Below, piece by piece: positions 5,783-56,791 of a stretch of DNA of 64,000 bases. Each line of letters begins with the position of its first letter. Within the stretch, counting starts at the first letter, position 1. A program made the position numbers and the translations under genes. The stretch comes from Microbotryum silenes-acaulis (taxonomy: Eukaryota > Basidiomycota > Microbotryomycetes > Microbotryales > Microbotryaceae). The stretch covers positions 496,001 through 560,000 of the forward strand of contig QPFY01000005.1 in assembly GCA_003665825.1 (NCBI GenBank), in the 5' to 3' direction. The notes under the pieces were generated by a model. The model did not search any database, was not told the DNA's origin, and was given only the letters and a program-made list of their open reading frames with translations.

Positions 5783-11425
<5,643 letters not shown>

Positions 11426-18210: not shown

Positions 18211-20187
18211 TTAGTTTCCACCGTCCTGAGATTGATCGTCGCCCCCTGCGGCGATAGCTGCCTCGTCCTCATCCTCACCCTCGAAAGCGCCTTCGGGAAG
18301 AGCGTACAATCGGATGACGGGCTGTGAGATCACGTTCGAAACACAAAAAGTCAGCTCCATGAAACCAGAATAAAAATATCGACGAACGTGATCTTTAAAC
18401 GCACCTTGTTGGGATCCTTGAGCAAGATGTACTTGCCGTCGGGCTGCTTGAAGCACAGGTCGGCGATGGTGCGCACGATACCCCACCCATTCGAAAGGTT
18501 GACGTTCATCTGGGCAGCAAAGTCGCGGGGTTTGTACCATTGCGTGCCCAAGATGGTGTGACGCGATGATTCGCGCGGGTTCGCTCGCGAGACGTAACCC
18601 ATCTTTATCTGCTCCGCACCGGCGAGGATGCTCGAGACGGCCCATCGGGCGAGCTTGCTCGAGTTGTTCTTCATCTCGGTCGCGACAACGGCACCTCGTT
18701 GGCTGTCGAGCTTGCTCCTCCAGTCGGGTGCCCCACCCGAGCCTTGTGCGCGCGAATCGAACTCGTTGAGCGTCTTGAACGTGATGTACGTGTTGTCCTC
18801 GTTGGCGGTCGCGCCTCGAACGAACGAGTCAACCTCGGTTCGGACCACAATCTGTACGTCCTCGTCCTCGCTCGTCGAGAGATCGAACAAGCGGTAGCGG
18901 TAGGCGCACGAGGCGAGCGGCTCGGTCTCGTCCGATGAGTAGAAAGGGTTGGGGTGCTCGAGCTCGATCCTCGCGTCCGGGTGTTCGCGCACAACTTGGA
19001 ACGCAAAGTTTTGGTTGATGTAGGTCGCTTCGAGCGACAGCGACGAGGGAGAGTTGAGCGTATCTTTCTCGCCATCAAGGGGAGGATCGGCAGCGTTTTC
19101 GTTGACGGACAGGTAGTCGAAAGTCGCCCCCTCTCGCTTGTCCATGAAGAGCTTGTCGCCCTCGCGCGTGAGCACAATGTCCCACGGGTAAACTGTTCGG
19201 GTCGTGCACATGAGCATCGCCAAGATGGCGTCGGTCGCAAAGATCTGTGCCTTGCCGTGGGCGGCGAGGTCCTGGATGACGGGATCGTCGGATGTGGTCG
19301 GGTTGTAGCGGATGCGCTCGATAATCTGTAGCGGCTTCTCGTTCTTGGTCGTGACACGGTCGTAGGTCTTGTCATACTCGTACAGGAAACCATGCGATAA
19401 GATCGTTTCCGGGTCTTCGGTGTCAACGTCGAGGCGCAGCTTGCCGAGACGGGAGAACTCGATCTCCTCGAGCACCTGCCAGTCGGCGCCGATGACGACG
19501 CTCGCGTCTCGTGTTCGCTGCTCCTTATTCCAGTCTCGCCATCCGAAGCGACCACCTTGTCCTCCGCCTCGTCCACCACGTCCTCCGGCCTGGCCACCAC
19601 GACCACCGCCCTGCATGGCGTTTCGTCCGCCCCGTGCACCGGCGGCTCCACCTCGGTTGCCACCTCGTCCTCCCCCGCGGTTGTTCTGGTTCGATCGTCC
19701 GAGGTTGCCGAGTCCACCACCGGTGGATCCACCCCGCTTCGACGCGGCGCTCTTGCTACCGTCGACGAGCGAAAAGCTGGCTTCGTCCTCGTCGTGGAAG
19801 TAGGCGAACGTGCCCGCACTCGAGGCGCCGAAGGCCTCCTTGGGCTCGCGACCGTACTTGCCCGCGCCGGCGGTTTGACCGGGTCGTCGTTGCCCTGCGC
19901 CGGATTGACCGCCCGAGGTCGACGCATCCATGTTCCAGTCGACGATGCGACCGAGCTTGTCGTTCTTGGAGAAGGGCGCATACGGGATACTGTGATCAAA
20001 TTCGTACACGGACGAGGGTCAGTTTGTGTGATGCGAGTTGGTGGAGCCTCGAGATTCGAGGAGGAGAGAAGGGGAGGGGTGAAACGCATGAAACGCACTC
20101 TTTGTATTGAGCAGGCAAATGCTCGGCCGAGGGGCCAAAGCCGTCCTGGTTGTCGACGACCGAGGCGATGAGATCGGAAAGACTCAT
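18211..20187 (-). CDS. Translation initiation factor eIF3 subunit d
   Basis: Three exons: 20187-20099, 19989-18405 and 18321-18211, giving 594 residues. The N-terminus reads VVDNQDGFGP, then IPYAPFSKNDKLGRIVDW, the conserved eIF3d opening, with the lysine-Asp junction split by intron 1. A Gly/Arg-rich RGG segment follows (about residues 120-180), the RNA-binding part of the family, then the cap-binding-domain core, ending KPVIRLYALPEGAFE and an acidic tail. eIF3d is a peripheral subunit of the 13-subunit eIF3 complex and binds the mRNA cap on selected messages. An in-frame ATG 11 codons upstream (20220) could also be used. It is divergently arranged with the nitroreductase gene. Confidence 0.93.
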
Positions 20188-28089: not shown

Positions 28090-30627
28090 ATGGCTGGTAT
28101 GCAAGGAACCGACGCCGCAGTGGCAGGACTCGCCTTCGCCACTCATGACGAAGCGCTCCAGCAGGAGCGGTTCGCCAACTCGGAAAAGGCCCCTGCGTCA
28201 TATGGCAGTCCCAAGCGATCCGACTCTTTCGAGGCTTCTACCGCCGCGATCGCTTCTGACGCCCCGACGGAGGAAGACAAGGTTAATCTGCGTCGAGTCC
28301 CCGCACCCATCCCCATTGCCAGTTTCCTCGTGTGCGTTCCAATCTCCTCCTGAGTCCTTTGCTTTAACAGGTGGCGATGTTCGGAAGGCGCTTTGCCCCT
28401 TCTTCCTGCCACCTGCGACGGAGCCGCGCTTGGGTGCCGCGACATGACAAAGATGACTAATTCGTTCGCAAAACCCCGCACACTTTACATTTTGCTTCCT
28501 CATTGCAGTGGTTTCATCGAACTCGTGAGTCCGCTCTCCGCTACCTCCACTTGTGATGTCTCAGATGACGTGCTTTGTCCGGTGTGCCCCCACCTTTTTC
28601 CTGGCATCCCTGCTGACTCGCCCGCTGTTCCTCCTTTTTCCCTCTCTACTCAGGCTGAGCGATTTTCCTACTAGTACGTTCGAAGCATACCGCTGGTCGG
28701 ACGCCCACTCAGTACATTACCATAGTGTCTGACCGAGTTATTTCGTCCGGCATCTTTTCTTTGCTCGCTCAACCGCACAGTGGAAGTACCGTTGTCTTCA
28801 CCAAGTACGTGTGATTTTTCTTCGTCTTTTATTTTGCGACCTCCGAAACTGACGTGCCCAATTTGTGCAAACCTCTCTCAGCTTCATTCAACAAAAGCTC
28901 CCCGCTGGCTCGACCACGGGTTCGTCAACCGCGAACCAGGTCTCAGGAGCTCTCGGCAAAGGTCAACGCGCGTCGACCGGTTTGACAACCTTCAACTCCT
29001 TCTGGGTGTACGTCACGCCGCTGTTCGGTGCCTACATCGCCGATACCTACCTCGGACGTTACAAGACGATCTGCTGGGCCGTTCTTGTCGCCTTGATCGG
29101 CCACGTCATTCTCACCGTCTCAGCAATCCCTTCGGTTATTGCCAAGCCCGACACGGCGCTCGGTGAGTGCGGAAGCCCCTCGTGGGAGCGCTCAATTTTT
29201 GTGCGAGAAGGTCAATAACTGAACTCGGAAAAAATTCACAGGTATCTTTGTTGTCGCCATCATCATCATGGGTATCGGAACCGGCGCATTCAAGTCCAAC
29301 ATCTCGCCCCTGATTGCCGAACAGTCCGCTGTGGGATCCCTCCGAGTCGAGACGCGCAAGAACGGCGAGCGCGTTCTCGTCGACCCCATCCTGACGGCAT
29401 CGCGCGTTTACATGTACTTCTACCTCTCGGTCAATGTTGGTGCTTTGGTTGGACAGATCAGCATGGTCTACGCCGAGAAACGTGTCGGTTTTTGGCTCTC
29501 GTACCTCCTGCCGACTTTGGTCTTCCTCTTCTGCCCCGTCATTTTGTGGATCGGTCGCAACCGCTACATCAAGACCCCTCCCAACGGTTCGGTTCTCTCC
29601 AAGTCGATGCGCGTCATCCGATTCGCTGGTCGAGGCAAGTGGACCCAGCCCAAGAGGCTCATGGCCAACGACTTCTGGGATGCCGCCAAGCCCTTCAACA
29701 TCCCCGTCGAGCAACGACCCGGGTGGATGACCTTTGACGACGCTTATGTTGATGAGCTGAGGCGTGGATTGAAGGCGTGCAAGGTGTTCGTGTGGTACCC
29801 CATCTGGTGGCTGACGTACAACCAATGCAACAATAACCTCGTGTCACAAGCTGCTACGATGCAGACCCACGGTCTCCCCAACGATGTCTTGTCCAACTTG
29901 GACCCCTTCGCGCTCGTCATCCTCATTCCGGTCTGCGACTTGCTCGTCTACCCCGCCCTGCGCAAGTACGGTATCCGCTTCACCCCCATCAAGCGCATCA
30001 CTGCCGGTTTCCTGATCGGTGCTCTGGCCATGCTTTGCGCTGCTGTAAGTTAATCAATACGGTGAACCTTTTGCGCAGCCATTTCTATGCTGACACTTCT
30101 TTCTCCACCACGGTGATCTAGATCGTCCAATGGCAAATCTACAAGCAATCCCCCTGCGGATACCAGGCCGCCACTTGCGAAGAGTTCGCTCCCATCAACG
30201 TATGGGCTCAGGTAAGCACGAGTCGGGCCTACATGATCCAGTCCTATTCCAGAGTTCTGATCCGACCTTTTTTCACCAGACTCCGTCTTACGTCTTCATC
30301 GCGCTGTCCGAGATCTTCGCCTCCATCACCGGTCTCGAAATCGCCTACACGAAAGCGCCCAAGTCGATGCGTTCGCTCGTCACCGCTGTCTTCCTCTTCA
30401 CGTCGGCGATCTCTTCCGCCCTCGGCGAGGCGTTCCTCGCCTTATCGAGCGACCCCCTCCTCATCTGGAACTACGGCGTGATGGGTGTTTTGTCCTTCGT
30501 CGCCGGGATCGGATTCTTCCTCTCGTTCCGCGAATTGGATGCCGACGAAGAACGCCTCAACGATTTGCCCGAAGGTCACGTCTCGCAGAAATACACGGAA
30601 AAGGAGTTGCAGGCCGAACGATCTTGA
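28090..30627 (+). CDS. PTR2: Proton-coupled oligopeptide transporter (POT/PTR2 family)
   Basis: Eight exons: 28090-28331, 28509-28524 (16 bases), 28654-28673 (20), 28781-28804 (24), 28882-29162, 29242-30044, 30122-30211 and 30280-30627, giving 607 residues. The microexons encode the proton-coupling ExxER motif: ELAERFSYYGSTVVFTNF. Next come GAYIADTYLGRYKTI (cytoplasmic signature) and GIGTGAFKSNISPLI, then SVNVGALVGQ. About twelve hydrophobic segments are expected. Family members import di- and tripeptides across the plasma membrane using the proton gradient. The N-terminal 75 residues are hydrophilic and serine-rich, a usual site of regulation. AATAAA at 30659 is a plausible poly(A) signal. 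Confidence 0.95.
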
Positions 30628-32212: not shown

Positions 32213-33027
32213 GGCGGTGACCCTTCCCCCACACAAAGGTTTGTCTCTTCCTCCAGTCTCGCATCCCGCCCACGGGAGGGGGGGCGGTGATCCCTCGAAG
32301 TCCCCTCCAGGTGATCGTCTGCCATACGCCGCTGATTAGGCTCCCTTCGTCACGCAGTACAGACACTTTCGATAACAGAATGTACATCTCCCAAGGTCAC
32401 GTTCACTTTTGCCTTTCTCTTCTCCACAACAACAACGCCCCTTGTACACCACTCGACGTGCTTTCGACTAGTACGGTACATGCGTCGTGTCTACAGTACC
32501 TGCATCGTGTCCACAGCTCTGCCGCCACTGATCCCGGCTGGAATCCAAGCATCATGCGCCTGCGTCTGAGCCCTCCTTGATCCGAAGCGAGCATGCGAGA
32601 TTTCCTCGCTATGGTATGGAATCTAGTTCTCGTCCTCCTGTTAGGTTGGGAAGGATCACTGGGTGTATGGGACATGCTCGATTGATAGCTAGGCGAAGGT
32701 TGGTACAACAAAGCAGAACGAGAAGGAAGCGAAAAACGGCGCGATAAAAACAAAAACGAAACGACTCGATTGTCTCACACTCACACAGAGACGAGATTCA
32801 AGCAGATATATACTGAAAGCAAGCCGTGACTCTCCCCGATCCCGTCTCGCCCGTCAAAAGATCATCACGGATCTTCCCGAGACACGCACCGCTCAAGTGG
32901 CTCCAGCTGTCGGTACACGTGACTCCCACATCAGCTTTCATTGAAGGTAAAAAGACCTGAACTCATCAAGCAACTGGTGTACGCACGTGCGGGTATCAGC
33001 GTACACCATCGCGTGCGATTCGACCAT
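32213..33027. other. Convergent intergenic region
   Basis: Lies between the 3' ends of the small plus-strand gene and the RAD54-like minus-strand gene. No coding signal; it presumably holds both terminators. Confidence 0.4.
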
Positions 33028-34323
33028 TTAGACCCCGTCTTTGCAGCGCTTGCATTCGAATAGATAGTGGGTCTGATCGAACGATGGGGTTTAACGTCAG
33101 ATCCTGGCACAGATCAGATCAGGTATGCCCGCGCGGAGCTCACTTCGCATTCTGACTCCTTGTACTGCAACATTTGAAGCAAATCATCGCCCGAGAAGTG
33201 AGCCAGGATCTCCTCGTTCGAATCGACGACGAAGGAGGGCAGACTTTGGCTATGCAGTTGGTGTTGGAAGACTGCGGATCGACGATGGCTGGTCAGCATT
33301 CGTGTTCCTGGAATTTCGAGGAACAGAAAGAGCAGCTCGATCACTCTTTTCCTCGACTGTTCCAGTCGCGATGAGGCGATAGATGAAACCTGGGAGCGGG
33401 GAGGCAACGGAACCGCGGTCAGCGAGATCCACCCCCTCTGGTCATCGCAAAACACGATGGCGGCCTCACAATTCTTTTTCTGTCCATCACGCCAGACCCG
33501 AGCGATGGCGTGGGCATCCGAAGCGATGTTCCAATCTACCAACCCCGCAAGACATGGACCCGTCAGCGTAAATCCTCCAACGGGGTCTCATGGCGGTGGC
33601 ACACGAGACTGACCCGGATCCAAGAGGATCAATCGATTCGCGCCCACCAGGTTGACCCCACACCCACCGGTCTTAGACAACAACAAGAAGACACGTTCCT
33701 CGCCGGTCGGATCGTTGAACCGATCGACCAACTTCTGCCTCTTCTCTGTGCTCATCGAACCATCGAGCCTCAAAAAATTGTACTTTCGAGCATGACACAA
33801 GCGTCCGATGATGTCGAGCGTCGAGGTAAAATTACTGCAGACGACGATCTTGTCGGTCGTTTCGCGTCGCATCTTGTCGAGGAACCGATCGACGACGGCA
33901 AGCTTGCCCGACAATTCGGCCTGGCATGACTCGTAGCGCGAACGTTTGTCGCGTGGGTTGTAGCCGGGTGGGAAGAGGTCCTCGAGGTAGGGAACATCTC
34001 CGTCATAGTCGAGCAAGTCGGGGTGGTTGCACAACTTGCGGAGGATCGTGATCGCCTGAAAGGGTTCCGACCCCTGACCGCGCAGCAATTCCTTGGTCTC
34101 TGGCGCATGCATGACGCGTTGGTACAAGGCGAGTTGGAACGGCGACAACGTGCAAAAAACGACGTGCTCATGTTTGACGGGGAGGTACTTGGACAAGACG
34201 TCGTTCGTACGGCGGATGATGTACTTGTTGGATTTGGTGTTCAGCTCCCCGAGTTCCTCGCTGCCGGTCTCTCGTTCCTGCCCCGTCGCCTCACCATCTT
34301 GGCCGCGCAGAATCGGCACCTCG

Positions 34324-34570
34324 TGTCGTTTGATATGTGTCTGTGCCTGTGGTATCTGCGCGGATGCGCGTGCGTTTAGTCATTAGTCACTTTGGTATTG
34401 GAGTTTGATCTGTTTAAGTTAGGGAGCGCGCGGGGCTTTCTTCCCGCGCGGCTGTTTACTCTTGGTAGCTTTCTCATCACTCGCTCTACATTGTGGTCCT
34501 GACTTCTCGGCGTCGTGCACCCTCACCTATCGGAAGGCTTTACTTCCGCGCTCGCATCTTTTCTGCGATA
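34324..34570 (+). repeat. 5' LTR of copia element 2
   Basis: 247 bp, TGTCG...CGATA. It contains a GC-rich hairpin-like segment (GCGCGCGGGGC...CCCGCGCGGC) near 34425-34455. Confidence 0.9.
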
Positions 34571-34641
34571 GGTTGAGTCCAACGGGTAGCGTAGGAGGCC
34601 CGGGTCAGCAAAGCGATTCACATCGCACCACCAACATCGGA

Positions 34642-37600
34642 ATGGACACCGAAACACACTCCACTGAAACGAGTGAACGTGGATTACATGTCCCAATTCT
34701 TCGGGCATCCAACTATATGGATTGGCGTCGACGTCTGATTGGTCGTCTTGGGTCCAAGGATTTGCATCTTTGCGCCTCGAGGCGGATGAGCCCGGCTGCG
34801 GAGGCGGTTCTCCAAGCCGCAATCGACGATCGATCGCGTGGCTTCCACTCGCCCCTCGAGCGGCTCGACTTCGCAGCTATGGACGCGAAGATCGCCAAGG
34901 AGCTAAAGAAGGAGGTTCGAACTCAAGCTGAAATCATTCAGTTTCTCGATGAGGCCAATCTTCGCTTGGTCAGGGGTTGTTACACGTCTTACGACATACT
35001 CGACTCGCTGAACACGTTCTACCTCGGAACGATGAGCGCTCAGATTTCCGCCTTGACGACTGAGCTCTATGCGCGCAAGTTCTCGTCTGGCGATCGTGGG
35101 CAGTTACTGCACCACTTGATCACCATTCAAGGAATTTTGCAAGATCTTGAGGCGTGTGGCTCTGGGATGCCACCAGCTCAGCAGTCGACGCTGATGCTCG
35201 ATTCCGTCTTTGACTCCCAACACGACTCGTTCACAAGCTCACTGCGTCGACCTCTGGTTCTACCTTCGGAGATTGTTTCCGAGGCACGGTCTTACCAGTT
35301 CAAAGTCTCGCTGGCAAGTCGAATCAATGGACTATCTGCCACGACTTCCGGACGCGCCATTGCTCAGTCGCCTGTTCCTGCGCTCGTTGCACAAGGCGAA
35401 TCGCAAAAGGGCCCGCGTCGCAAAAGAGGTCACAAGAAAGGCAATCGCGACGGTCAAGGAAATCGCCGTCCTCCCGATTCTACCTGTCATGCGTGTGGAG
35501 CGAAGGGACACTGGTCTAGCGATGCAGTGTGCCCGGAAAACCGTTCAAAGTCATCTGCAGCCCCCGCGTTGGTTGCAATGAACTCCCATTCCCTTTACCT
35601 TGCTGGTTCTTCCTCGAGAGCTCCCGATACCGACTTCGTTTGGATCGCGGATACCGGAGCTGGTCACCACTTTGTTGGCGATCGCTCGCTGCTCTCGGAT
35701 TTCAAAGAATCCCCGATTCAAGTCCAGATGGCCGACAACTCGCTTGGTCAAGCCACTGGATACGGGCGAATGTCTGTTAAGACTTCGCAAGGTCACCTTC
35801 TCAAATTCAAGGAGATGTACTACCTCCCTGGATCGAAGTATGGTCTAATCTCAATGTCGTCGCTCCGCGCTGGAGGCGCGATATTGGTTTATGGCCATGG
35901 GGGAGATACTCAACAGGTTTGGCTTGACGGCTCTCTCGTCGCCGAAACTGTCAAGACGAAGGCCAAACAACCAAGTTACGTCTTCGATTTTGAGATTGTC
36001 TCTCCCCCCTCGCCTGTGCTCGTCGCAGCTACCCGTGCTTCCGTTGGAGCTTCGCTCATGGAATGGCATCGGAACTTCGGACACATGGCACCCTCTTCAA
36101 TTCTTCAACTCGTCAAATCCAAGGCTATCGTTAGAATTCGTTTACTCGACAAGAAGATTGAAGACTGTGAGCCGTGCATTATCGCGAAGGCGCGCGCGGG
36201 CTCTCACAATCATGTCAGTCGAAAACCCGAACATGTTCTTCAACGGGTTTCGATCGATCTGGGATTCGTCAACGATGACGATACCAATGGGCGATCCATC
36301 TACATGGTTATCGTTGACCAACTTTCAACCTATAAGTGGGCTTTTCCACTTGGTTCGAAGTCGGCATCTGAAGTCCTCGAGGTCTGGCGCGGCTTTCAAG
36401 CGCAGGTCGAGAGGCAGTCCGGTCAGAAGATCAAGTTTGTTCGTTCTGACAATGGAGGCGAGTTCGTCAACCAACTCCTTGGCGGCGAATTCAAGGCACT
36501 TGGCATCACCCATGAACTGGCTGCACGCTACACGCCGCAGCAGAATGGTCAAGCGGAGCGCGCGAACGGCTCTCTCTTCGCGCTCGTCCGTGCCATGCTC
36601 AAGGACTCCGGACTTCCCAAGAAGTATTGGTTCTACGCATTGGAAGCGGCTGTTTTCGTTTCCAACCGCGGTCCTCACCCGCATCTCAAGGGCATGACTG
36701 CGTTCGAGGTCTTCTTCGGCAAGCAACCCGACGTTTCGCATCTTCGCGCGTTCGGATCTACTGCCTACGTTCTCGTCCCCAAGGCGATTCGTAAGAAGCT
36801 CGATGACCATACTGTCAAGGGTACTTTCCTCGGCTATTCGGGGGAGTACAACTACAAGGTTCGCGTCGAACACGGTCGGTCTTTCAAGATCGTCGTCTCT
36901 TCCGATGTCACCTTCTCCGACAAGGCTCCTTCGATCGCGGACTCGACTGTCGAGCCTCGCATCTACGAAGTTGAACCTCTACAGGAACACGAGTTAGTAC
37001 ACCAACTGCCGTTTCCTGGCTTGGAGCAGATTCCGGCTTTACGGCCTGCTCCCCTACCTGAGGCAGGTTTGGCTTTACGGCCTGCGCTCGTACCCGAGGC
37101 AGAAGTTCCGGCTTTACGGCCTGCGCTCGTACCCGAGCTTGGTCCGGCTTTTCGGCCAGCTCCCGCTCCTCTTCCACGTTTCCAACATATGGACGATGAC
37201 GACGTTGCTCCTCCTCCTTTCCCGGCTGTCGGTCCATTGGCCGAAGACGCTGAAGTTGAAGAGGACCCGATCGATCATCGACGCGAGGAAGCTGTTGAGG
37301 CTATCGGCAGTGACGACGACGACGGCCCTGCGGAACACGATCAACCATTACCTCCTGAGGAGGGTTACGAGTATCGACCTTACCGTGTCGGCCGCAACCC
37401 TGGTGCGCTCGAGAACGTCGATGCAGGTAACATTTTACCGACTCGCCTGCGTGCTCAGCATCACACAGGCGCCCTTCGTGTCGTGTCTACTCGCTCGGTC
37501 TACCGTCGTCCACCAGAGCTCATTGCTATGGTTTCGTCTCGTCACCCCCCGCTTCCCAAGAATTTTGTGGAGGCGATGGCCTCTCCTGAGGCCAAACACT

Positions 37601-39117
37601 GGATGGCCGCTTCTGAAAAGGAGTTGGGCTCATTCAAATTGCACAAGGTCTTCAAGCTTACGAGGCTACCCACCGGGGCTCGCGCCCTGGGCTATCGTTG
37701 GGTGTTCACTCGCAAAGAAGACGCTGAAGGCAATATCATCAGCTACAAGGCTCGGCTCGTTATCCAAGGCTTCGCTCAACGACTTGGGATCGACTACAAC
37801 GAGACGTTTGCTCCTGTCTCGTCGATCACGACGATTTTGTTTCTCATTGCCGTTTCTGCCGCTCTCGGACTCGTCCTCGAACAGTTCGACTATGATTCTG
37901 CGTTTCTCAACGGGATCATGGAGGAGGATGTCTACATGAAGATTCCTGAAGGATGGACTGGTGGCTCTCAGCCCGGTCACGCTCTCAAGCTCCTTAAATC
38001 TATGTACGGCACCAAGCAGGCTCCTCGGCAATGGAACGCGGCTCTCCACAAGCTGATGACGGATCGCGGCTATACGCGCTCCAATGTCGATGCTTGTCTG
38101 TACTTCAAGTATCATGGCAAGTCGTTCGCAATCATCACTTTGTACGTTGATGATGGGCTTGCTGCATCGAACAACCAGGCTTTTCTGGACTCGGAGATTT
38201 CGGCTTTCGATGCGGTCTACAAGCTCAAGCGACTTGGCCCGGTCAAGACGTTCCTCGGTCTCGAGTTTATTCGTACCAAGGATTTCATCTTTGTCCACCA
38301 GTCCAAATACATTCGAGGCTTACTCAAGCATTACACGTTCGAAAGCAAGTCGAAGAAACCGGTCGCGACTCCAATGGAGGATCGCGTCGTTTCGTCTTCT
38401 ACTGCTTCGTTCGCCGACATCCTCGTTTACCAATCGGCTGTGGGAGCGCTTCAATATGCTGCGCAACGTGTTCGTTCCAATATCGCGACTGCTGTTCGTG
38501 CGGTGGCGAAGTGCGTGGCTGCTCCAACCGAAGGAGACTGGATCTGCGTCAAGCGAATCTTTCGCTATCTTTCTGACACCGTCGACTATGGGCTACTCTA
38601 CCGCGTAAGCGGTTCTACCAAGTTCGAGGTGTACAGTGACGCGTCGTTTGGTTGCGATCACGACAACGGAAGATCTGTGGGAGCGTATGTTGTCATTATG
38701 GCTGGCGCTGCCATTTCCTGGAAGTCGAAGCAACCAACGATGGTCGCTTCTTCTACAGCAGAGTCTGAGACTCTGGCTGCTTCAACCGCAGCAAAGGAGG
38801 CTATCGGTCTTCGCAACCTGGCGTCCGAACTTCGCATCAATCAAGGTCAATCTACTGTTCTGCACGAGGACAACCAACCTTGCATCGATTTGGCGAAGAA
38901 TCCCGGAGCTCGAGGTCGTACACGCCATTGGAATGTGCATCATTTCTATCTACGCGAACGAATCGAGGTTGGCGATATTGATCTCCGCTACTGTCCGACC
39001 GATCTGAACACGGCCGACATTTTCACGAAACCCCTGTCCAAACTCAAGTTCGCTACGCATCGCGAGGGACTCGGGATGGTCTCGCTGGCTACCTTGGCAT
39101 GGGGGAGTGTCGTTTGA
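34642..39117 (+). CDS. Copia element 2 Gag-Pol polyprotein
   Basis: One open frame of 1491 residues from the first ATG after the 5' LTR. Gag ends in a zinc-knuckle-like CHACGAKGHWSSDAVC (C282-C297) with CX2CX4HX6C spacing instead of CX2CX4HX4C. Protease ADTGAGHHF (Asp337); integrase His476 finger and D539-D603-E639 triad; RT with LYVDDG near residue 1168; RNase H with YSDASFG and ASSTAESE; C-terminal ADIFTKPLSK. Between integrase and RT is a proline-rich linker with imperfect ALRPALVPE repeats (37030-37170). The TGA stop falls 8-10 bases inside the 3' LTR. Sequence and codon choice differ from element 1, so this is a separate copia lineage. Confidence 0.95.
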   Translation: MDTETHSTETSERGLHVPILRASNYMDWRRRLIGRLGSKDLHLCASRRMSPAAEAVLQAAIDDRSRGFHSPLERLDFAAMDAKIAKELKKEVRTQAEIIQFLDEANLRLVRGCYTSYDILDSLNTFYLGTMSAQISALTTELYARKFSSGDRGQLLHHLITIQGILQDLEACGSGMPPAQQSTLMLDSVFDSQHDSFTSSLRRPLVLPSEIVSEARSYQFKVSLASRINGLSATTSGRAIAQSPVPALVAQGESQKGPRRKRGHKKGNRDGQGNRRPPDSTCHACGAKGHWSSDAVCPENRSKSSAAPALVAMNSHSLYLAGSSSRAPDTDFVWIADTGAGHHFVGDRSLLSDFKESPIQVQMADNSLGQATGYGRMSVKTSQGHLLKFKEMYYLPGSKYGLISMSSLRAGGAILVYGHGGDTQQVWLDGSLVAETVKTKAKQPSYVFDFEIVSPPSPVLVAATRASVGASLMEWHRNFGHMAPSSILQLVKSKAIVRIRLLDKKIEDCEPCIIAKARAGSHNHVSRKPEHVLQRVSIDLGFVNDDDTNGRSIYMVIVDQLSTYKWAFPLGSKSASEVLEVWRGFQAQVERQSGQKIKFVRSDNGGEFVNQLLGGEFKALGITHELAARYTPQQNGQAERANGSLFALVRAMLKDSGLPKKYWFYALEAAVFVSNRGPHPHLKGMTAFEVFFGKQPDVSHLRAFGSTAYVLVPKAIRKKLDDHTVKGTFLGYSGEYNYKVRVEHGRSFKIVVSSDVTFSDKAPSIADSTVEPRIYEVEPLQEHELVHQLPFPGLEQIPALRPAPLPEAGLALRPALVPEAEVPALRPALVPELGPAFRPAPAPLPRFQHMDDDDVAPPPFPAVGPLAEDAEVEEDPIDHRREEAVEAIGSDDDDGPAEHDQPLPPEEGYEYRPYRVGRNPGALENVDAGNILPTRLRAQHHTGALRVVSTRSVYRRPPELIAMVSSRHPPLPKNFVEAMASPEAKHWMAASEKELGSFKLHKVFKLTRLPTGARALGYRWVFTRKEDAEGNIISYKARLVIQGFAQRLGIDYNETFAPVSSITTILFLIAVSAALGLVLEQFDYDSAFLNGIMEEDVYMKIPEGWTGGSQPGHALKLLKSMYGTKQAPRQWNAALHKLMTDRGYTRSNVDACLYFKYHGKSFAIITLYVDDGLAASNNQAFLDSEISAFDAVYKLKRLGPVKTFLGLEFIRTKDFIFVHQSKYIRGLLKHYTFESKSKKPVATPMEDRVVSSSTASFADILVYQSAVGALQYAAQRVRSNIATAVRAVAKCVAAPTEGDWICVKRIFRYLSDTVDYGLLYRVSGSTKFEVYSDASFGCDHDNGRSVGAYVVIMAGAAISWKSKQPTMVASSTAESETLAASTAAKEAIGLRNLASELRINQGQSTVLHEDNQPCIDLAKNPGARGRTRHWNVHHFYLRERIEVGDIDLRYCPTDLNTADIFTKPLSKLKFATHREGLGMVSLATLAWGSVV

Positions 39118-39437
39118 TATGTGTCTGTGCCTGTGGTATCTGCGCGGATGCGCGTGCGTTTAGTCATTAGTCACTTTGGTATTGGAGTTTGATCTGTTTA
39201 AGTTAGGGAGCGCGCGGGGCTTTCTTCCCGCGCGGCTGTTTACTCTTGATAGCTTTCTCATCACTTGCTCTACATTGTGGTCCTGACTTCTCGGCGTCGT
39301 GCACCCTCACCTATCGGAAGGTTAGTTACTGGAATACTTATTATCACTTGCTCTACATTGTGGTCCTGACTTCTCGGCGTCGTGCACCCTCACCTATCGG
39401 AAGGCTTTACTTCCGCGCTCGCATCTTTTCTGCGATA
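39108..39437 (+). repeat. 3' LTR of copia element 2, with internal duplication
   Basis: 330 bp. Compared with the 5' LTR it has 83 extra bases (39322-39404): a 62-base copy of 39260-39321 preceded by 21 unrelated bases (TTAGTTACTGGAATACTTAT plus T). Otherwise nearly identical to the 5' LTR. Confidence 0.9.
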
Positions 39438-40490
39438 CCTCGTAGCACTTGTGGAAGTCCTGTTTCGTACCGAGGTAACAGGGGTTGCAGAATGAAAGCA
39501 AGCTAAAGTACTCGTCCAAATCGTTCTGTTGAGGAAGAGGAATCTCCTGGTCAACAAGGTGTCGGAACAGGCGCTGTCGTGAGCACGCCGCAACGGACCT
39601 GGATCGGGTCACCGGTAAGAACGATGCGATGCTTGCAGTTGATCGACATGAGCGCCGTATAGATTCGATTCTCTGTGGCGACCACGCAAAGAAAGATCAG
39701 AGCATGCTTACACCCACGGGTGCAATCAAAGTCACCACGTACCCGAGTTCTTGAGACGATGCCCTTCATCGGCGAGGAGCAACCCAACCTCGGTCTGCCC
39801 CAGTTCCTCCGTCAACCAGCCGATTCGTTCGTATGAGACAATGACAACCGTTCGAGGAGGATACGGTGTCAGTACATGGGCTCGCTTCTCCATCGACCGA
39901 AACGAAATACTTACCCAGCTCATTGGCCCAGTGGCGCACGAGCGATGACGGACACACGACCACGGCCTTGTCGATGGCCAGTCGATTCGCAGTCGGAGGT
40001 TGCTTGAGCAGCGTCCACATGAGCGTGATGCATTGTAGCTGCAAAGACAAGGGTGAGACTGGATCAGTGATTGCGCAAAGCCCAATTGACCCTGACCACA
40101 CTACCCACCCTTTTGCCGACACCCGATGCGTCGGCCACGATACAGCTGGGTTGGACAAGAATCGCATCAGTTCCATGGGAGAATAGCCTCGTAGATCCGA
40201 ACGAATGCGCACCCATAAGCGTTCTCATCCGTCATGCCCGTCACGCAGCGGTACAAAAACTTGACGCCTTCGACTTGATGCGGTCGCAGGAACTTGCCAA
40301 CGCTCGAATCGATGACGAAAGAGAGATTGGACTGCTCGTTGGAGTCAACTTCCAGCTTGTCGATGTCGAGGACCACGTGCAGATTGCGAGGATCCTTGGG
40401 GCGCTCGGCTTGAGCTTCAGAGATGCACGGCCTTGAGAGCGCGAATAGGGGCCAGCAGAACTCACTGGGACGATGCCGTTCGAATGGCCG

Positions 40491-41354
40491 CTAGTGATAA
40501 GCAGGTGGTGCATGAGGGGAAGCAGGGCAGCCGCTGGGAACTGGATGACCGGCAATGGACAAGCGTCGAGACGAACGAGGAAGAGCTTCTTCTGGGGTCT
40601 TTCGCAGCTTGTCCCTCGAACCCTCGATAATCTCTTGGTCGAGCCTGCCAACTTGACCCTCGCTCGCCTCCAGGTTCAGTCGACCGATCGAAGCTTCGAC
40701 TTGGACGCCTTGACCCCCGAGCTCCTTGCGGTTAAAGTCGGAGCGAGTAACGATTCGTGGTTTGTCCTCGGTGCACGCCACCGTCACGCGCTATTTGATC
40801 CTCACAGTCTTTGTGTAAAATTGTCCCTCACCATCCTGATCTTCGAACTTCAGGTATGCGGGTGGCAGCTCCCAGTGGATAAACACGACGCCGGCTCGGA
40901 TCCACTTGTTGCTGCCCGAGTCGACGAAGAGGTAGCGGTTGCGACGGGGATCGATGTCCGGAGTCTCCGCAGGACCCGCTTCCTCACGATTGAGGTGCTT
41001 TTGAAGCTCCTCCGCCGTCATCGGCACCGCGCTCGACGCGGACAGACAAGGGAGACCGGGCAGGAGCTGAGGTGCGCAGAGGTATTCCATGCCCCACTCC
41101 GGGTCACCTTCGCCGACGAGTCGTGCCTCGTTCCAGTCAATGGAGGGGAATTTGAGTTGGAGATTCTTTTTGTGGAACGCGGAAGTGTTGAAGATCCTCT
41201 CGATTGCGGCCTCCGTCTTCAAGGGGCGAAAGTAGGGCATCCAGTCGTTGTCCCACTCGGGTTGGGACGATTTGTCATGAACGACGGATGCGGACGCCCC
41301 TGTCCTTCCCTCGCTGCGTCTATCCGACAACCAGCCCAAGGAGCCTGCTAACAT
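40491..41354 (-). pseudogene. Unrecognised ORF with one in-frame stop, upstream of RAD54-like gene
   Basis: On the minus strand a protein-like frame runs from about 41354 to 40491 and is broken only by a TAG at 40791-40793. Before the stop are DWMPYFRPLKTEAAIERIF, GDPEWGMEYLCAPQLLPG and NKWIRAGVVFIHWELPP; after it, DKPRIVTRSDFNRKELGG and LEASEGQVGRLDQEIIEG. I do not recognise the family. It sits where the N-terminal exons of the RAD54-like gene would be expected, but it does not resemble the RAD54 N-terminal domain. It could be a decayed separate gene, a decayed 5' part, or hold a very small intron over the stop (15 bases, too short to be credible). Confidence 0.45.
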
Positions 41355-41832
41355 TCAGCAACACGAAACCCCTTGATTCTTCTCACTTAGAACATCGTCT
41401 TTGTCATCGTCGTCATTGTCATCGTCGGCATTGTCATCGTCGTCGTCGTCGTCTGCGTCGCCGTCATCGTTGTTGGATATCAAGTCATGGGTTGGCAGGT
41501 CGCTGGGAATGGAAGGATAAGGACGGCACGACAGGTTAGAAAGCGAATGGTGGGATGCAACACTCCCACGGCTTGGGTTCTGTGACTGGTTTGAAATAGT
41601 TTTCTTTGGTCGAGGTAGGTTACATCGCGCACACACCAGTGCGGGTGGCATTCAAGAAGCTTCCCCGGGCTGCACATTCCGTGCGCCCGTCCGATGTTGC
41701 AATCTACTTTTGCGCAAGGGACCGTTTCCAAACATTCCAGCAGCCCCCCAATGGCCCGTCGACGCGCGCAATGTGAGAGTGTTCTTTGAAAATTGCGATG
41801 GTAACTGCTGCCTTTGCTACATGTCAGGATGA

Positions 41833-43670: not shown

Positions 43671-44364
43671 CGCTGCTGGAGGGGGTGGTGGTGGGGAAGC
43701 CCTTGTTCAGGAGAGAGCGAGAGCGCGTGCGCGCGCACACGGACGACGGGCAGTAAGACACGCGTATAGGGAACGGGAACTCTGCGGCGGACGTTGGAAT
43801 GATCGAGCCGAGTTGTGTGGAGTCTACTTGGTTTAGATGGGGGGTACGACGTCTTCTGCTGACCGTTGTTGAATCTGGCGTGCAAGAAGAGGAAGCGCAA
43901 CCGTATCCAGTTGGTGACGCTAGCGACAAAGGAGGAGCGCTTGGATCGGTCCGGGCCGCGGTGCTGCTGGCTATGCAGTGCGATTGCGATGCGCGGCGGG
44001 TGGTCGTCGAGTAGAGTGAAGCGAGCAAGCCACGAGACGCTGCGGATGGGAAAGACGGGGAGTGAATGAATGCGGTCGGGTTGCAAGTCGGGTACGAAGC
44101 GAGAGAGGAGAGGAATGTATCACAAGTGAGACATGCGGCAGTAGCGTGCACGGTACTCAGTCGGTACCCGTCCGCCGGCGCCGGCGCCGCTTGGCGTAGA
44201 AGACTCTCGACGCGATTATCGACGCGACGCGCGCGAAGCGTTCGATCATTGATGAGCGCCCCTCCTCGCCCCTCTTGACGCGTTGCCATCAATTTCCGGT
44301 CTCGCGCATCAGGACAACGGGTTTGCTCTGGGCTTGTCCTGCCTCCCGGATTACCATCCACGAC
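43671..44364. other. Shared upstream region of UPF0658 and JmjC genes
   Basis: About 690 bases between divergent starts. It includes a GC-rich alternating stretch (GCGCGTGCG and CCGCCGGCGCCGGCGCC near 43725 and 44170) that could be promoter structure. No ORF supported. Confidence 0.4.
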
Positions 44365-45285
44365 ATGGCCACACGAAGGACGATCCGTCGTATCGTCACC
44401 ACCACCCCCAGCGTATCATCCTGGCTATCGCCCCCAGCGGGCCAACCCCTCCTCCCGACGCTCATCTCGATCCCACCCGTCCCAGCGCAATCCAAATGGT
44501 TCCTGCCGCACCCCCCCACGAACAAGCTTGATCGTCCACATCGTCACCTCAACCTCGACCACCTCACCGAATCGGGAACCCAAAACCCTGTCGTCAACAT
44601 CGAGCATACGCGAACGGGAACCGAATCCTACTTCGAGCGCCTCGAAGTACCATGGTCCTATTACCTGCACTACCTCGATAATCCACCCTTCCCGAACACG
44701 TTCTCGAATGAGCCGCTTTCAACTTCAACACTTTACCTAGCCCAATCGCTTCCACCCTCCCACCTCCTACCCGACCTAACCCTCCCCCAAACTCAACAAA
44801 ACTTGCCCCTCTCCGGTCAGACCCCTTCCTCCCTCTGGATGGGCCGAACCCCGACCACGACCCCCATGCATCAAGATCCGGACCATAACCTATTCCTCCA
44901 ATTGTGCGGGGAGAAGAAGTTTAGGTTGATGGAACCCAAGGTGGGGAAGAGCGTTTTCGAAAAAGTTCAAGAGAGGGGACTCGGAAGACTGGGTAAGGCG
45001 GCGGGGTTGAGGGATCGGAGAGGTCGTTTGAGAGGGGAGGAGATGATGTTGCCCGGTCCGGAAGGGGACAGGGACGCGTTGGAACGAGCGGTGTGGGAGG
45101 ATAGTTGTGATGGGCAAGTTGGATCCGAGTCGGAGCAGGCGCAGGAAGAGGTCTTCCAAGTTACGGTCCAGAGTGGTCAAGCTTTGTTGATCCCTCAGGG
45201 ATGGTGGCATGCCGTGAGGTCGAGGTCGACTAGGAGGGATGGCGAAGAGGAACTATCCGTGTCGGTCAATTGGTGGTTCAGGTGA
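44365..45285 (+). CDS. JmjC/cupin-8 domain protein, probable Fe(II)/2-oxoglutarate oxygenase
   Basis: A single uninterrupted frame of 306 residues. The motif LWMGRTPTTTPMHQDPDHN supplies the HxD metal ligands, with KKFRLMEP following, and GWWHAVRS near the C-terminus supplies the second histidine after LLIPQ. The final VSVNWWF matches the closing strand of the JmjC barrel in KDM8/FIH-type proteins. These hydroxylate proteins or RNA; the substrate here is unknown. The frame is open upstream, but its first ATG is 44365. The first 30 residues (RRTIRRIVTTTPSV) are basic and could be a mitochondrial presequence. It is unusual in lacking introns among intron-rich neighbours. Confidence 0.82.
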   Translation: MATRRTIRRIVTTTPSVSSWLSPPAGQPLLPTLISIPPVPAQSKWFLPHPPTNKLDRPHRHLNLDHLTESGTQNPVVNIEHTRTGTESYFERLEVPWSYYLHYLDNPPFPNTFSNEPLSTSTLYLAQSLPPSHLLPDLTLPQTQQNLPLSGQTPSSLWMGRTPTTTPMHQDPDHNLFLQLCGEKKFRLMEPKVGKSVFEKVQERGLGRLGKAAGLRDRRGRLRGEEMMLPGPEGDRDALERAVWEDSCDGQVGSESEQAQEEVFQVTVQSGQALLIPQGWWHAVRSRSTRRDGEEELSVSVNWWFR

Positions 45286-49937: not shown

Positions 49938-52900
49938 ATGTTTCTCGTAAGTTCATTCCACAGTTGCACGCCTACCTCCGCACTGATCAGCTTCCTGTCG
50001 CGCTGCAAACAACAGGTCAACCGACGTCAGTAGTTCTCGGCTCGTCGACCCCCACCCACTCGACCGCCTCCCGTGCTGTGCCCAGCGTACCCTTCTCTTT
50101 CTGCACTATCCACGCTCATTCTCACCTCCACCACACACAGTGCTGGGAACGAACAAGCCCAAGGTCGGCGCAGAAGAGTTGACCGTGATCGACCAAGGAC
50201 GGCTTTATCTCGTCCGACCCGACAGCCTCAAGGCCGGCAGGGAGTGCATGTCAGTCCGCCATCACCGCCGCCATCCTCTCCGCCACAACCCAACACATTC
50301 GTATTGTATGCCCACAGCTTCATCGACGCGTCCATCTCGATCCGAAGGACCACGTACGAACACACCTACCAACTCGTCGTCACCAGGACCTTCCAAGAAG
50401 GCGAGGAGCAATTGCTCGAAGAGGATGCAGAGAGTCAGTTCTGCAGATCCCCCCCTGTATCCATTCTCTTGTCATCTTTTGAACTCACCCCCCCCCCTTG
50501 TACCCGCCCACCCGCCCACAGACTCGGACGAACGTGCGTTCCTGATCGACGAGAATCTCTTCCTCTCCGTCGGACCGACCCTCGACCCTTCCGCCGCCAC
50601 ACCCCCCCCCTCCTCCATCACCTGGGCCGACCCCGAAGGCGATGGACCCGAAGACGAGTTCGAATTCGTGCTCGCTCCCGCACCCGACATCACCGCTCAG
50701 GCCCACGAGTTTGAGAGGCTCGTTTGGAGGTGTCTCTGGGAGGACAAGACGAACAGAAGTTGGCCGACGGATGCGAGGGAGGTCGCGATGATCGAGGAGA
50801 ACGAGTTGCAGCAATTCATGATCGAGTACGTTTTTACGTTGATGCGACCGTGTTCTTCGGGCGAGTCGGCTGCTGTTGGCTACTCGCGCGGTGAAGCGCT
50901 ATGGAGGCGCGATGCGGGGAGAGGAGGTCAATGCCGATTTCGAAGCTTAAGCGTGGGCTGACGTGTGATCCTTCCTCCTCCACTATACCGTGCACGATGC
51001 CTAGACGCACCGCACCTCAACCATTGACGGCCTCGACCAAGCAACCCTTGTTCCGAGCAGCGACCCCCGAATCCGACTCTGATGCCGAAGACTTTCGTCC
51101 TCCCCCGCCTTCGGCACGCAAGCTGACCACCGCCGACTTGGACGACTCGGACGACTCACGCCACGACGACTCGGACGACGAACGCCACCAGCTGGCTGCG
51201 ACGCTGATGAAGAAGGCGACCCTCACCCCTTCCTCGACCGCCAAGGGCAAAGTCAAGGCCACGTCGGCACCCGCCTCTGCCGCCCCCACGCCTTCGAGGA
51301 CAAAGTCGAAGGCGAAGGAGCCGATCGAGACCGTGACCGAACAACCGCCCAAACGATCGACCCCGGGCGGCGTCGTCAAGCAAGCCTTGGTCAGCGTCGA
51401 AGGTGATCTGTACCTCTACGATCGAGCGACGGGGATGTTCATGATGCAGGAACCTTTGGTCCAAGCGAGCATCCATCGTACGATGGAGGCGTACTGGCTC
51501 ATCGTCGAGGGCAAGACGGGGCCGTGGGTCAGTCAGGGCATCGATTCCGAAACGACGTTCAGCGAGGTCAGTCCTTTCCCAAATTGGTCTAGAATCGTTT
51601 CCGCAGAAGTAAATTGGACTAACGTCGAACATGGGGAGGAACGAACCGCAGGCGGAGAAATCCATGGTCTTCAACTACCGTTCCGAACCCGAAGACGGGC
51701 TGGGCGAGTCGTCCCAAGTCTACACTTGGCTCGTGAGGTTCCCTACGAGCAAGCCGTTTGAGATCATCCAACAGGCCGTGACGACCGCGTTGTTCGAGGA
51801 CAAGTTCGGTAGCGGGACGTGGCAAAAGTTGAAGGAAGATGAACAGGCTTATCAACGACGGGCTTATATTGACGATGCGGAGATGTTTGATGCGGTGGAG
51901 GAAGAGGAAGAGGGTCAGGGCCAGAGTCAGGAGGAGGTCGATGAGCTGGATGAAGAAGAGGAGGAAGGGGAAGAAGGGGAGGATGACGACGAGCGACCCA
52001 AGTTTGGAGAGGGGACGAGGACGAAGAATTCTCAGTTGGCCGTGGGTTACAAGGACTCGTTGTCGTTCGTGGTGCAGGGGGATATGATTGGCGTGTTCAA
52101 GCAACAACGCGATGGGGGCAAGAAGGTGAGCAATGCCAATTCCTGAAGTGAATCGAGGCCGTTCAGAGGTTGGAGATTTGACTCTGACGCGATCCGCGGT
52201 CGTGGGGGGAACAGCTCAAATTCGTTACGAGCATCGTCAACATCTCGACACCCGATGGCAAGAAGGCGTTCACACCGCAAAAGGTCATGCTGCACAACCA
52301 AGGTGAGTGTCCAAAGTATATAGGGTCCTGTGGACTTGAGTGAAGCTGACCATGTTGAAATACATTCCCTTTCGCCAGACACATCGATGATCTTGCAAAA
52401 CCCTCTTGCGCCTGGCTCGCTCTACCGGCTAGATCTCACGACGGGCCAAGTCGTTGACGAGTACAAGGTTTCGGATGAGGTGCAGGTCAAGTCCTTCCTT
52501 CCCGACTCCAAGTTTGCCCAAACGACGCAACAACAGACCTTCATCGGTCTCTCGCACAACAGCGTCTTCCGCATCGACCCTCGTCTCTCGGGAAGCAAGC
52601 TCGTCAACGATGAATTCAAACAATACGTGACCAAGAACGATTTCTCGGTCGCCACGACGACTGAATCGGGTCGGTTGGCCGTCGCTTCCAACAAGGGTGA
52701 TATCCGCTTGTTTGACAAGCTCGGCAAGAACGCCAAGACGGCTTTACCTGCGTTGGGGGACCCGATCCTCGGAATCGACGTGACCGCCAATGGGCGATGG
52801 GTCCTCGCGACATGCAGGACGTATCTCTTGTTGATCGATACGCTAATTCCCGAAGGCGCAGGGCGCTACGGTGGTTCATCGGGCTTCGATCGTTCCTTCC

Positions 52901-53418
52901 CTGCAGGCCAGAAACCCATGCCCAAGCGCCTGCAACTCAAACCCGAACACGTAGCGTACATGCAAGAACAATCGAGGGAAGGGGTTTCCTTTACGCCCGC
53001 GAAATTCAATGCCGGTCTAGGAGCGGATGAGAGGACGATCGTCACTTCGACGGGGCCTTACATCGTCGCCTGGAATTTCAGACAGGTCAAGCAGGGGAAC
53101 GTCGCGAATTATACGTTGAGGAGGTTCTCGGATACTATTGTGGCGGATTCGTTCAAGTTCGGGGGGGATCGAGAGATTGTGAGTGGCTGATTGCCCGTTT
53201 GAGGCGCTTTCGAAATGTGGAGCTGACGGGGGTTTTGCTTGATTCAGATCGCCATGTTGCCGAACGACGTCTTTGTCGAGGACAAAAAGAAGCTCAAAGG
53301 TCAGTCCAAGAGCTTGATTTTTTTATGTGATTCATGACCACCGACGTCACTGTCCTTGCTACCCACAGCTCCCAATCGCGATTCCATCTCGAGCGTCGTC
53401 AAGAGCTACTACGCTTGA
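49938..53418 (+). CDS. VID27: VID27 vacuolar import and degradation protein
   Basis: Eleven exons: 49938-49946 (9 bases), 50016-50025 (10 bases), 50141-50249, 50318-50433, 50522-50825, 51005-51566, 51652-52125, 52215-52302, 52379-53178, 53248-53299 and 53369-53418, giving 857 residues. N-terminal segments match VID27 (IDQGRLYLVRPDSLKAG, FIDASISIRRTTYEHTYQLV), followed by a phospho-rich linker, a PH-like middle (GDLYLYDRATGMFMMQEP), an acidic run and a C-terminal WD40-like propeller (LYRLDLTTGQVVDEYKV, FIGLSHNSVFRIDPR, VATTTESGRLAVASNKGDI, GPYIVAWNFRQV). Genetic work in yeast links VID27 to vacuolar degradation of fructose-bisphosphatase; mechanism unknown. The two tiny first exons are the only arrangement I found that keeps phase. 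Confidence 0.92.
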
Positions 53419-55947: not shown

Positions 55948-56239
55948 GGACGGGTATGGATGCTTTCTGCGTTGCGACCAATTCTTGCAATTGTAATTAG
56001 ATTCCTCCATCGATTCTGTACACAAGTCCAGTGTTGCATCACCCCTAAACTCGCTCACTGCCAGCCAGGAAGTCGATGTCGATGCCCTGATCGGCGGTCG
56101 TATACTCGGGGAAAACTCTGATAGTTTCAAAGCCACGAACACCACATGATAGACCTTTTTGTCTTTGGCTCTTTTGAAGCACAGTGGGCAAAAATAGAAG
56201 ATCAAGTTTGATGAGACCAAAAGACGAACTGTTTCTTGG

Positions 56240-56791
56240 CTTTCTACCTTCACGTGCGTGGCGTGGTGTTTCAGAAATCCACCCTTGAACGTCTGGCCCA
56301 GATCCTTGAGTTGATCGACCTTGTCCGTGATGCGCTTGAGAAACTCGCCAAGATTGGTGTCCTCATCGTACGACGCGTTGGAGATCTCCATGAGTAGCGT
56401 ACGAATCTTGAACGGATCGGCGTTCCCTTCGTGGCGTTGTTTCAACTTCTCCCAAATAGACTTGGCCGTGAGCGACTTGCTCTTGACCATCTTGAGGTTT
56501 GAATCGTCGAGGCACGACTCGGAGATGATGATCGCGCGTGCTTGACGGTCCCGCTTGTTGAGGAAGGTGGGAACGTTCTCCTCCTCAAGGCTTGTGTAGA
56601 TGCCATGGAGCAATCTCCATGCTTTCGCATATACTCGTAGGACGTTCAACACCATGCTCGATAACACTGGTGTGACCACGACCTTCGAGGAACGCATCAA
56701 CTCTGATCGATGAGAGCTCGTAGTTGTCTTTACCGAGCTTGACGATCTTGACTTCCCCTTCATTCGATACATTGGTAGACGATGAACTCAT
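56240..56791 (-). pseudogene. Decayed copia-type gag fragment
   Basis: The minus strand reads [10 protein letters not shown] and [10 protein letters not shown] from an ATG at 56791, then, after a frameshift near 56650-56690, [40 protein letters not shown] and [15 protein letters not shown]. This is the UBN2-type Gag of Ty1/copia elements. No LTR, protease or pol is found nearby, and the gag differs from those of both full elements. It is an old remnant abutting the truncated GMC pseudogene. Confidence 0.7.

What the first reader, a model, noticed from the sequence alone, without database searches (positions are those of the whole stretch)
33028..40421. RAD54-like recombination gene cut in half by a young copia retrotransposon
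The element at 34319-39442 sits inside a conserved SNF2-helicase exon, in antisense, with the CCTCG duplication on both sides. The host frame matches exactly across the site (FHKCYE on one side, PILRGQDG on the other). Near-identical LTRs argue for a recent event. If this is the only RAD54 locus, homologous recombination should be crippled; otherwise it is one allele of a diploid or dikaryon, or a dispensable paralogue.
Basis: partly seen in the sequence, partly recalled or inferred. Interest (0 to 1): 0.75.

Follow-up and report, generated by a model that had tools for sequence, protein, structure and literature searches.

The report
Jumping gene in a dead RAD54 copy
In an anther-smut fungus a young copia retrotransposon sits inside a spare RAD54 copy that had already decayed, while an intact RAD54 lies on another contig, so DNA repair by this route is not expected to be lost.

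Summary
In detail: a copia element (34324-39437) with 5-bp duplications CCTCG lies antisense in a RAD54-type exon, and the host frame matches across the site. The alarming reading fails. The host is a Microbotryum (anther smut); its intact RAD54, on contig C3, is 92% identical to that of M. silenes-dioicae. The window copy, on C5, is an old paralogue (75-79% DNA identity, introns included) with faults of its own: at least 225 N-terminal codons missing at a joint with a C6-like repeat (40420/40421), exon 4 and a splice acceptor lost, motif I GKT now GKR, motif III TGT now TGD, and a stop in exon 11. It departs from RAD54 at 47 of 239 near-invariant sites, C3 at 0: too many changes for an element with 2 LTR substitutions in 247, so the target was not a working RAD54. 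Yet its remaining exons keep C3's lengths and 9 of 9 testable introns keep GT-AG, so it was probably a coding gene for most of its life. In passing: 6 of 8 elements of this family with matching target duplications have unequal LTR repeat numbers.

The parts
34324..39437 (+). copia-type LTR retrotransposon inserted in the RAD54-like copy
   Evidence: LTRs, 5-bp duplication, one 1564-codon frame with gag, integrase and then reverse transcriptase domains
34319..34323 (.). target-site duplication CCTCG, left
39438..39442 (.). target-site duplication CCTCG, right
34324..34570 (+). 5' LTR, 247 bp, one 83-bp unit
39108..39437 (+). 3' LTR, 330 bp, two 83-bp units
34423..39117 (+). gag-pol open frame (stop to stop); PF14223, PF22936, PF13976, PF00665, PF25597 and PF07727 matches in that order of the element's frame
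32798..34318 (-). RAD54-like paralogue, part downstream of the insertion: rest of exon 7 and exons 8-12, to the natural stop at 32798-32800
39443..40420 (-). RAD54-like paralogue, part upstream of the insertion: tail of exon 1, exons 2, 3, 5, 6 and the start of exon 7
33028..33030 (-). premature in-frame stop in exon 11 of the paralogue
39848..39914 (-). 67 nt left where the C3 gene has intron 3, exon 4 and intron 4 (66 + 123 + 70 nt); exon 4 is lost and the acceptor before exon 5 is not AG
40109..40145 (-). exon 2 with altered motif I (Walker A): ADASGVGKR where RAD54 has ADEMGLGKT
39599..39672 (-). exon 6 with altered motif III: LTGDPIQ where RAD54 mostly has LSGTPIQ or LTGTPIQ
40420..40421 (.). 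joint where RAD54 homology stops (at least 225 N-terminal codons missing) and C6-like sequence begins
40421..41255 (.). sequence 89% identical to contig C6 (319500-320329)
41305..41707 (.). dispersed repeat (also on C6, C23, C3, C2, C11 and C4); in the four copies looked at (C6, C23, C3, one on C2) it ends at the same point, ...TCTAC

Best explanation
In a Microbotryum genome RAD54 was duplicated long ago. The C3 copy stayed the working RAD54. The C5 copy drifted away: it kept its reading frame and splice sites for most of its history, but accepted changes at sites that RAD54 hardly ever changes, including the ATPase motifs. It lost its 5' end at a joint with a C6-like repeat, lost exon 4 and gained a stop. 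Very recently a copia element of an expanding family inserted antisense into exon 7. Shown: the two copies, the lesions, the element and its duplication, and the open C3 gene. Inferred: that C3 is the working copy, the order of events (the divergence between copies is far older than the element), and that the insertion has no effect on recombination because its target was not a working RAD54.
For: Genome-wide protein search: 2 of 16 matches are RAD54-grade (the window, and C3 at 78%); the other 14 are 28-50% identical. C3 gives an 857-residue open product with Rad54_N, SNF2 and Helicase_C, 92%, 91% and 85% identical to the RAD54s of three Microbotryum species. C5 departs at 47 of 239 sites that are at least 98% conserved in 119 full-length RAD54s; C3 at 0; the worst of the 119 at 11, median 0. 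Truncation, exon 4 loss, missing acceptor and stop. Ages: C5-C3 dS 0.62, dN 0.14 over 584 codons against 2 substitutions in 247 LTR positions; both of these are variants found in other copies of the family. C5 falls in the Microbotryum clade (support 100/99) with a branch of 0.27 against 0 for C3.
Against: No expression data: a truncated or chimeric transcript could still have had a use before the insertion. The order of truncation, exon loss and stop relative to the insertion cannot be read one by one; only the bulk of the substitutions must be older. The long-kept frame says the copy was not idle for most of its life. A C5 orthologue in other Microbotryum may be unannotated, merged at 90% clustering, or of a length (435-470 residues) that neither protein search covered.
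Confidence: 0.9

Rival explanations
1. One reading: the copia insertion disrupted the fungus's working RAD54 and cripples homologous recombination.
For: The insertion is real, lies within a RAD54-type ATPase exon and is young.
Against: A RAD54 with all motifs and an open product is on C3; the window copy has changed motifs I and III, no N-terminal part, a lost exon and a stop.
Confidence: 0.02
2. The C5 sequence is a gene fragment carried there by a transposon or a rearrangement, neutral from the start, not a former gene.
For: It starts abruptly mid-exon at a joint with a C6-like sequence and a dispersed repeat, and no remnant of its 5' part was found in the genome.
Against: The 11 remaining exons keep the C3 lengths (exon 1 only as far as its tail goes) and 9 of 9 testable introns keep GT-AG, while those introns carry 49 gaps in 677 bp; about 64 exon indels would be expected on the C5 branch if it had been neutral throughout. 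Pairwise dN/dS is 0.23.
Confidence: 0.15
3. The window copy is the other allele of a diploid or dikaryotic assembly.
For: Dikaryons occur in this group (recalled).
Against: 21-25% divergence, different long contigs, one STE3 locus in the assembly.
Confidence: 0.02
4. The junctions are an assembly error.
For: The element family is repetitive, with 44 LTR matches listed.
Against: Perfect 5-bp duplication, host frame matched to the base, and flanks of one gene on both sides. Reads were not available.
Confidence: 0.03

Closest known systems
RAD54 / rhp54 (SNF2 family DNA translocase; Pfam PF08658 + PF00176 + PF00271)
   Same: The C5 fragment is a RAD54 homologue by sequence, intron positions and tree
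   Different: It lacks the N-terminal domain and exon 4, has altered motifs I and III, and a stop; it is not a working member
Ty1/copia LTR retrotransposons of Microbotryum (6.04% of base pairs on average over the Microbotryum genomes of PMC10502011; passages read)
   Same: Domain order gag - integrase - reverse transcriptase, short LTRs, 5-bp duplication, low divergence between copies
   Different: LTRs end TG...TA rather than the usual TG...CA (the usual form is recalled); 83-bp units vary in number between the two LTRs of one element
Pseudogenes of duplicated genes
   Same: Old duplicate with gathered lesions beside an intact copy
   Different: Frame and splice sites were kept for long while RAD54-specific sites were lost

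Membership tests
RAD54 | Rad54_N domain (PF08658) | tested here: not met
   Window copy begins after most of it; no remnant in the window or elsewhere in the genome at E up to 1. C3 copy: met, 110 bits
RAD54 | Two RecA-like halves (PF00176, PF00271) | tested here: inconclusive
   Pieces of both found on the two sides of the element, in 2 of the 6 frames given to Pfam, with exon 4 missing
RAD54 | Motif I GKT and motif III (S/T)GT | tested here: not met
   GKR and TGD; 119 of 119 full-length RAD54s have T at both places
RAD54 | Closest relatives are RAD54 rather than other SNF2 proteins | tested here: met
   PDB best match a RAD54-like protein at 212.7 bits, next 107; C5 falls with Microbotryum RAD54 at 100/99 (which held RAD54 rows only)
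RAD54 | dsDNA-stimulated ATPase and Rad51 partner activity | not testable with these tools
   no experiment available
Ty1/copia retrotransposon | Integrase upstream of reverse transcriptase | tested here: met
   rve 604-705 (31.4 bits, just under Pfam's cut-off of 32.6), with gag_pre-integrs 519-589 and SH3_retrovirus 765-834 beside it; RVT_2 1075-1319, 198 bits
Ty1/copia retrotransposon | Two LTRs and 5-bp target-site duplication | tested here: met
Ty1/copia retrotransposon | Primer-binding site matching a host tRNA | not tested
   Only noted that the bases next to the 5' LTR differ from other copies

The most novel reading that the evidence does not exclude
Before it died, the C5 copy was a RAD54 paralogue kept by selection for something other than RAD54's ATPase work: a spliced, frame-conserved RAD54-type pseudo-ATPase (GKR, TGD) peculiar to part of Microbotryum. 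The window would then show such a gene just after its loss, with the copia element as the last blow.
Probability: 0.25. Interest if true: 0.5.

Novelty: new member of a known kind. Interest (0 to 1): 0.25.

Why it matters
It removes a false alarm: this assembly holds an intact RAD54, so no defect in homologous recombination is implied. It also gives a rough series of events at one locus (old duplication, joint with a repeat, young retrotransposon) and a possible case of a RAD54 paralogue that kept its frame while losing the catalytic signature. Genomes of other Microbotryum species could settle whether that paralogue ever had a job of its own.

Tried and rejected
RIP as the cause of the C5 changes: rejected. 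C:G to T:A changes from C3 to C5 number 130, the reverse 143; TCG to TTG changes (either strand) 15, the reverse 18.

Lost 5' end moved elsewhere: the 295-residue N-terminal query (E up to 1) gives 3 matches: two pieces of the C3 gene and the known C5 tail.

A C5 orthologue in other Microbotryum: none seen among the best 120 listed of 995 proteins (136-434 aa), nor among the best 120 of 4303 (471-1500 aa, scored on the exon 7 region only). A product as close as C5 should rank near the top of either list. Lengths of 435-470 aa, unannotated copies and 90% clustering limit this.

Capture of the RAD54 piece inside an inverted-repeat transposon: no inverted repeats of 30 bases or more (14-base seeds) in 32500-41500, and the end motif at 41707 has no exact inverted partner in the window. 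What the repeat at 40421-41707 is stayed open: Pfam finds nothing in the two C6 reading frames tested.

A fused gene of C6-like sequence and RAD54: the C6-like frame ends at 40791 in the window while it continues in C6; judged unlikely.

Literature: 'Microbotryum' with 'RAD54' gave 1 paper, on a cheese fungus (listing only); RAD54 + pseudogene + fungi + gene duplication + paralog gave 2, neither on fungi by title (listing only); 'Microbotryum' + copia + 'gene fragment' gave 0; one search for LTRs of unequal length gave 0 (its terms were narrow); 'anther-smut' + copia + insertion + 'gene loss' gave 3 (listing); one search listed 20 of 31 papers on Microbotryum, retrotransposons and RIP. Passages of PMC10502011 and PMC5381629 were read; no whole paper was read.

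Full report
What is there. The element is real and its ends are exact: TGTCG... at 34324 to ...GCGATA at 39437, flanked by CCTCG. It carries one 1564-codon frame with gag, integrase and reverse transcriptase matches in copia order; the integrase core match (31.4 bits) lies just under Pfam's cut-off of 32.6. The host exons are on the other strand. Aligned separately to the same gene elsewhere, the upstream flank ends at ...FHKCYE and the downstream flank begins EVPILRGQDG; the C3 gene reads FHKCYEMPILRGRDG without a break.

Which organism. The window lies at C5:496001-560000 of an assembly of 29.85 Mb in 88 contigs. The intact RAD54 of this assembly is 92%, 91% and 85% identical to those of Microbotryum silenes-dioicae, M. 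saponariae and M. intermedium, and 71% or less to the rest of the 120 proteins listed. The host is therefore taken to be a Microbotryum species, an anther smut; which one is not settled. One STE3 pheromone receptor locus, on C6 (3 of 3 matches, neighbouring exons), suggests a haploid assembly.

Is it the only RAD54? No. A search with the exon 7 product found 16 matches: the window at 100%, C3:1832048-1832767 at 78%, and 14 others at 28-50%. The C3 gene was pieced into 13 exons with 12 GT-AG introns, an 857-residue open product (its start codon not fixed) and canonical ADEMGLGKT, DEGH, LTGTPIQ and ARVWRDGQ motifs, with Rad54_N at 110 bits, SNF2 at 255 and Helicase_C at 79.

State of the window copy. 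Counting C3's exons from the long N-terminal one as 1, the window holds the tail of exon 1, exons 2, 3 and 5 to 12, with introns, at 75-79% DNA identity. Five things are wrong with it apart from the element. (1) At least 225 N-terminal codons are absent; RAD54 homology stops at 40420 and at 40421 a sequence 89% identical to C6 begins, and no remnant of the lost part was found in the genome. (2) Between exon 3 and exon 5 only 67 nt remain of 259, exon 4 is gone, and the acceptor AG before exon 5 is missing. (3) Motif I reads GVGKR for GLGKT. (4) Motif III reads TGD for TGT. For comparison I used 119 full-length RAD54s: of the 120 proteins listed, one of 727 residues was left out; 332 proteins were held in all. 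Of the compared sites 239 are at least 98% conserved; the C5 copy differs at 47, the C3 copy at none. The worst of the 119 (Mixia) differs at 11, the median at 0.

Order of events. C5 and C3 differ by dS 0.62 and dN 0.14 over 584 codons, dN/dS 0.23. The C6-like stretch differs from its C6 relative by 11%, though C6 need not be its direct source. The two LTRs differ by 2 substitutions in 247 positions, and both variants occur in other copies of the family, so they may be older than the insertion. By my arithmetic (0.4% per lineage over about 1770 exon bases) some seven substitutions at most would be expected in the paralogue's exons since the insertion, so the many changed invariant sites must be older. 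That the target was not a working RAD54 when hit is thus well supported. The place of each single lesion in the order is inferred.

A puzzle. A neutral pseudogene as diverged as this should be full of frameshifts. The 11 remaining exons have the same lengths as in C3 (exon 1 only in its tail, compared from the 3' end), and 9 of 9 testable introns keep GT...AG. The same nine introns have 49 alignment gaps in 677 bp. At that rate about 64 exon indels would be expected on the C5 branch if neutral throughout, about 26 if neutral for 40% of it, and 6.4 if for 10% (P of none 0.0017). These figures depend on gaps drawn in divergent introns; with a third of them real and 40% neutral time, 8.5 are expected (P 0.0002). 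One search drew 10 exon gaps: three in the exon 4 deletion, three at alignment ends, and two +/- pairs that cancel. So the C5 copy was probably read as a gene for most of its life, yet without RAD54's constraints. This leaves room for a paralogue with another role, or with a weaker version of the same one. No RIP-like pattern explains the changes.

The tree (20 rows, exon 7 part only) puts C5 in the Microbotryum clade at 100/99 but does not resolve whether it split before or after M. intermedium; its branch is 0.27 against 0 for C3. In the same exon it matches the three Microbotryum RAD54s at 181-183 of 236 residues and the C3 copy at 186 of 236.

What it does. Nothing is expected to follow for homologous recombination. 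The element is one of a family with low divergence: 44 LTR matches are listed, 40 of 72 candidates having been scored, and three LTRs appear as two pieces. Passages of PMC10502011 describe copia bursts that reached all genomic compartments in Microbotryum and state, citing other work, that copia elements prefer to insert in genes.

Aside on the family. I paired LTRs by hand. Eight two-LTR elements have matching target duplications: in six the number of 83-bp units differs between 5' and 3' LTR (window 1/2, C10 1/3, C1 2/3, C9 3/2, C12 2/1, C3 2/1); in two it is equal (C5:1392135-1397162 and C4:1534669-1538142, 1/1). Units were counted from LTR lengths and core matches; the exact-word count gave 1 for the C12 5' LTR, which has a mismatch in one core. 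Two pairs on C36 (1/2 and 1/1) were left out for want of matching duplications, and solo or unpaired LTRs were not counted. LTRs are copied from one template at insertion (recalled), so a count that changes so often points to jumps between repeat units during reverse transcription, to recombination between copies, or to assembly error. LTR dating in this family should leave the units out.

Noticed in passing
window 34324-34570 and 39108-39437; L023/L037, L036/L039, L031/L038, L035/L078, L027/L080: 83-bp tandem units in the LTRs differ in number between the 5' and 3' LTR of the same element in 6 of 8 elements with matching target duplications.
   Followed up: partly
window 34571-34577: The bases just inside the 5' LTR read GGTTGAG, while the 15 other LTRs followed by internal sequence read GGTTATGA: a 2-base difference where the primer-binding site is expected.
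   Followed up: no
window 40421-41707; C6 (L059), C23 (L060): Repeat of unknown kind; four copies looked at share the end ...TCTAC at 41707. On C6 part of it lies in a 1.9-kb inverted repeat (97%, L059:3510-5392).
   Followed up: partly
window 6363-11234 (+): A second long copia-type frame (1624 codons, RVT_2, rve) in the same window.
   Followed up: no
window 55753-56787 (-): A copia gag-type frame (Retrotran_gag_2), perhaps a fragment.
   Followed up: no
window 18354-20018 (-), 29223-30053 (+), 44200-45282 (+), 50895-53187 (+): Ordinary genes nearby: eIF3 zeta, a PTR2 peptide transporter, a cupin-like protein and VID27.
   Followed up: no
G000:C36 and C8 (L069, L072): LTR copies on C36 and C8 share the same left flank GGGGAAGGC, a possible redundant contig or segmental duplication.
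   Followed up: no
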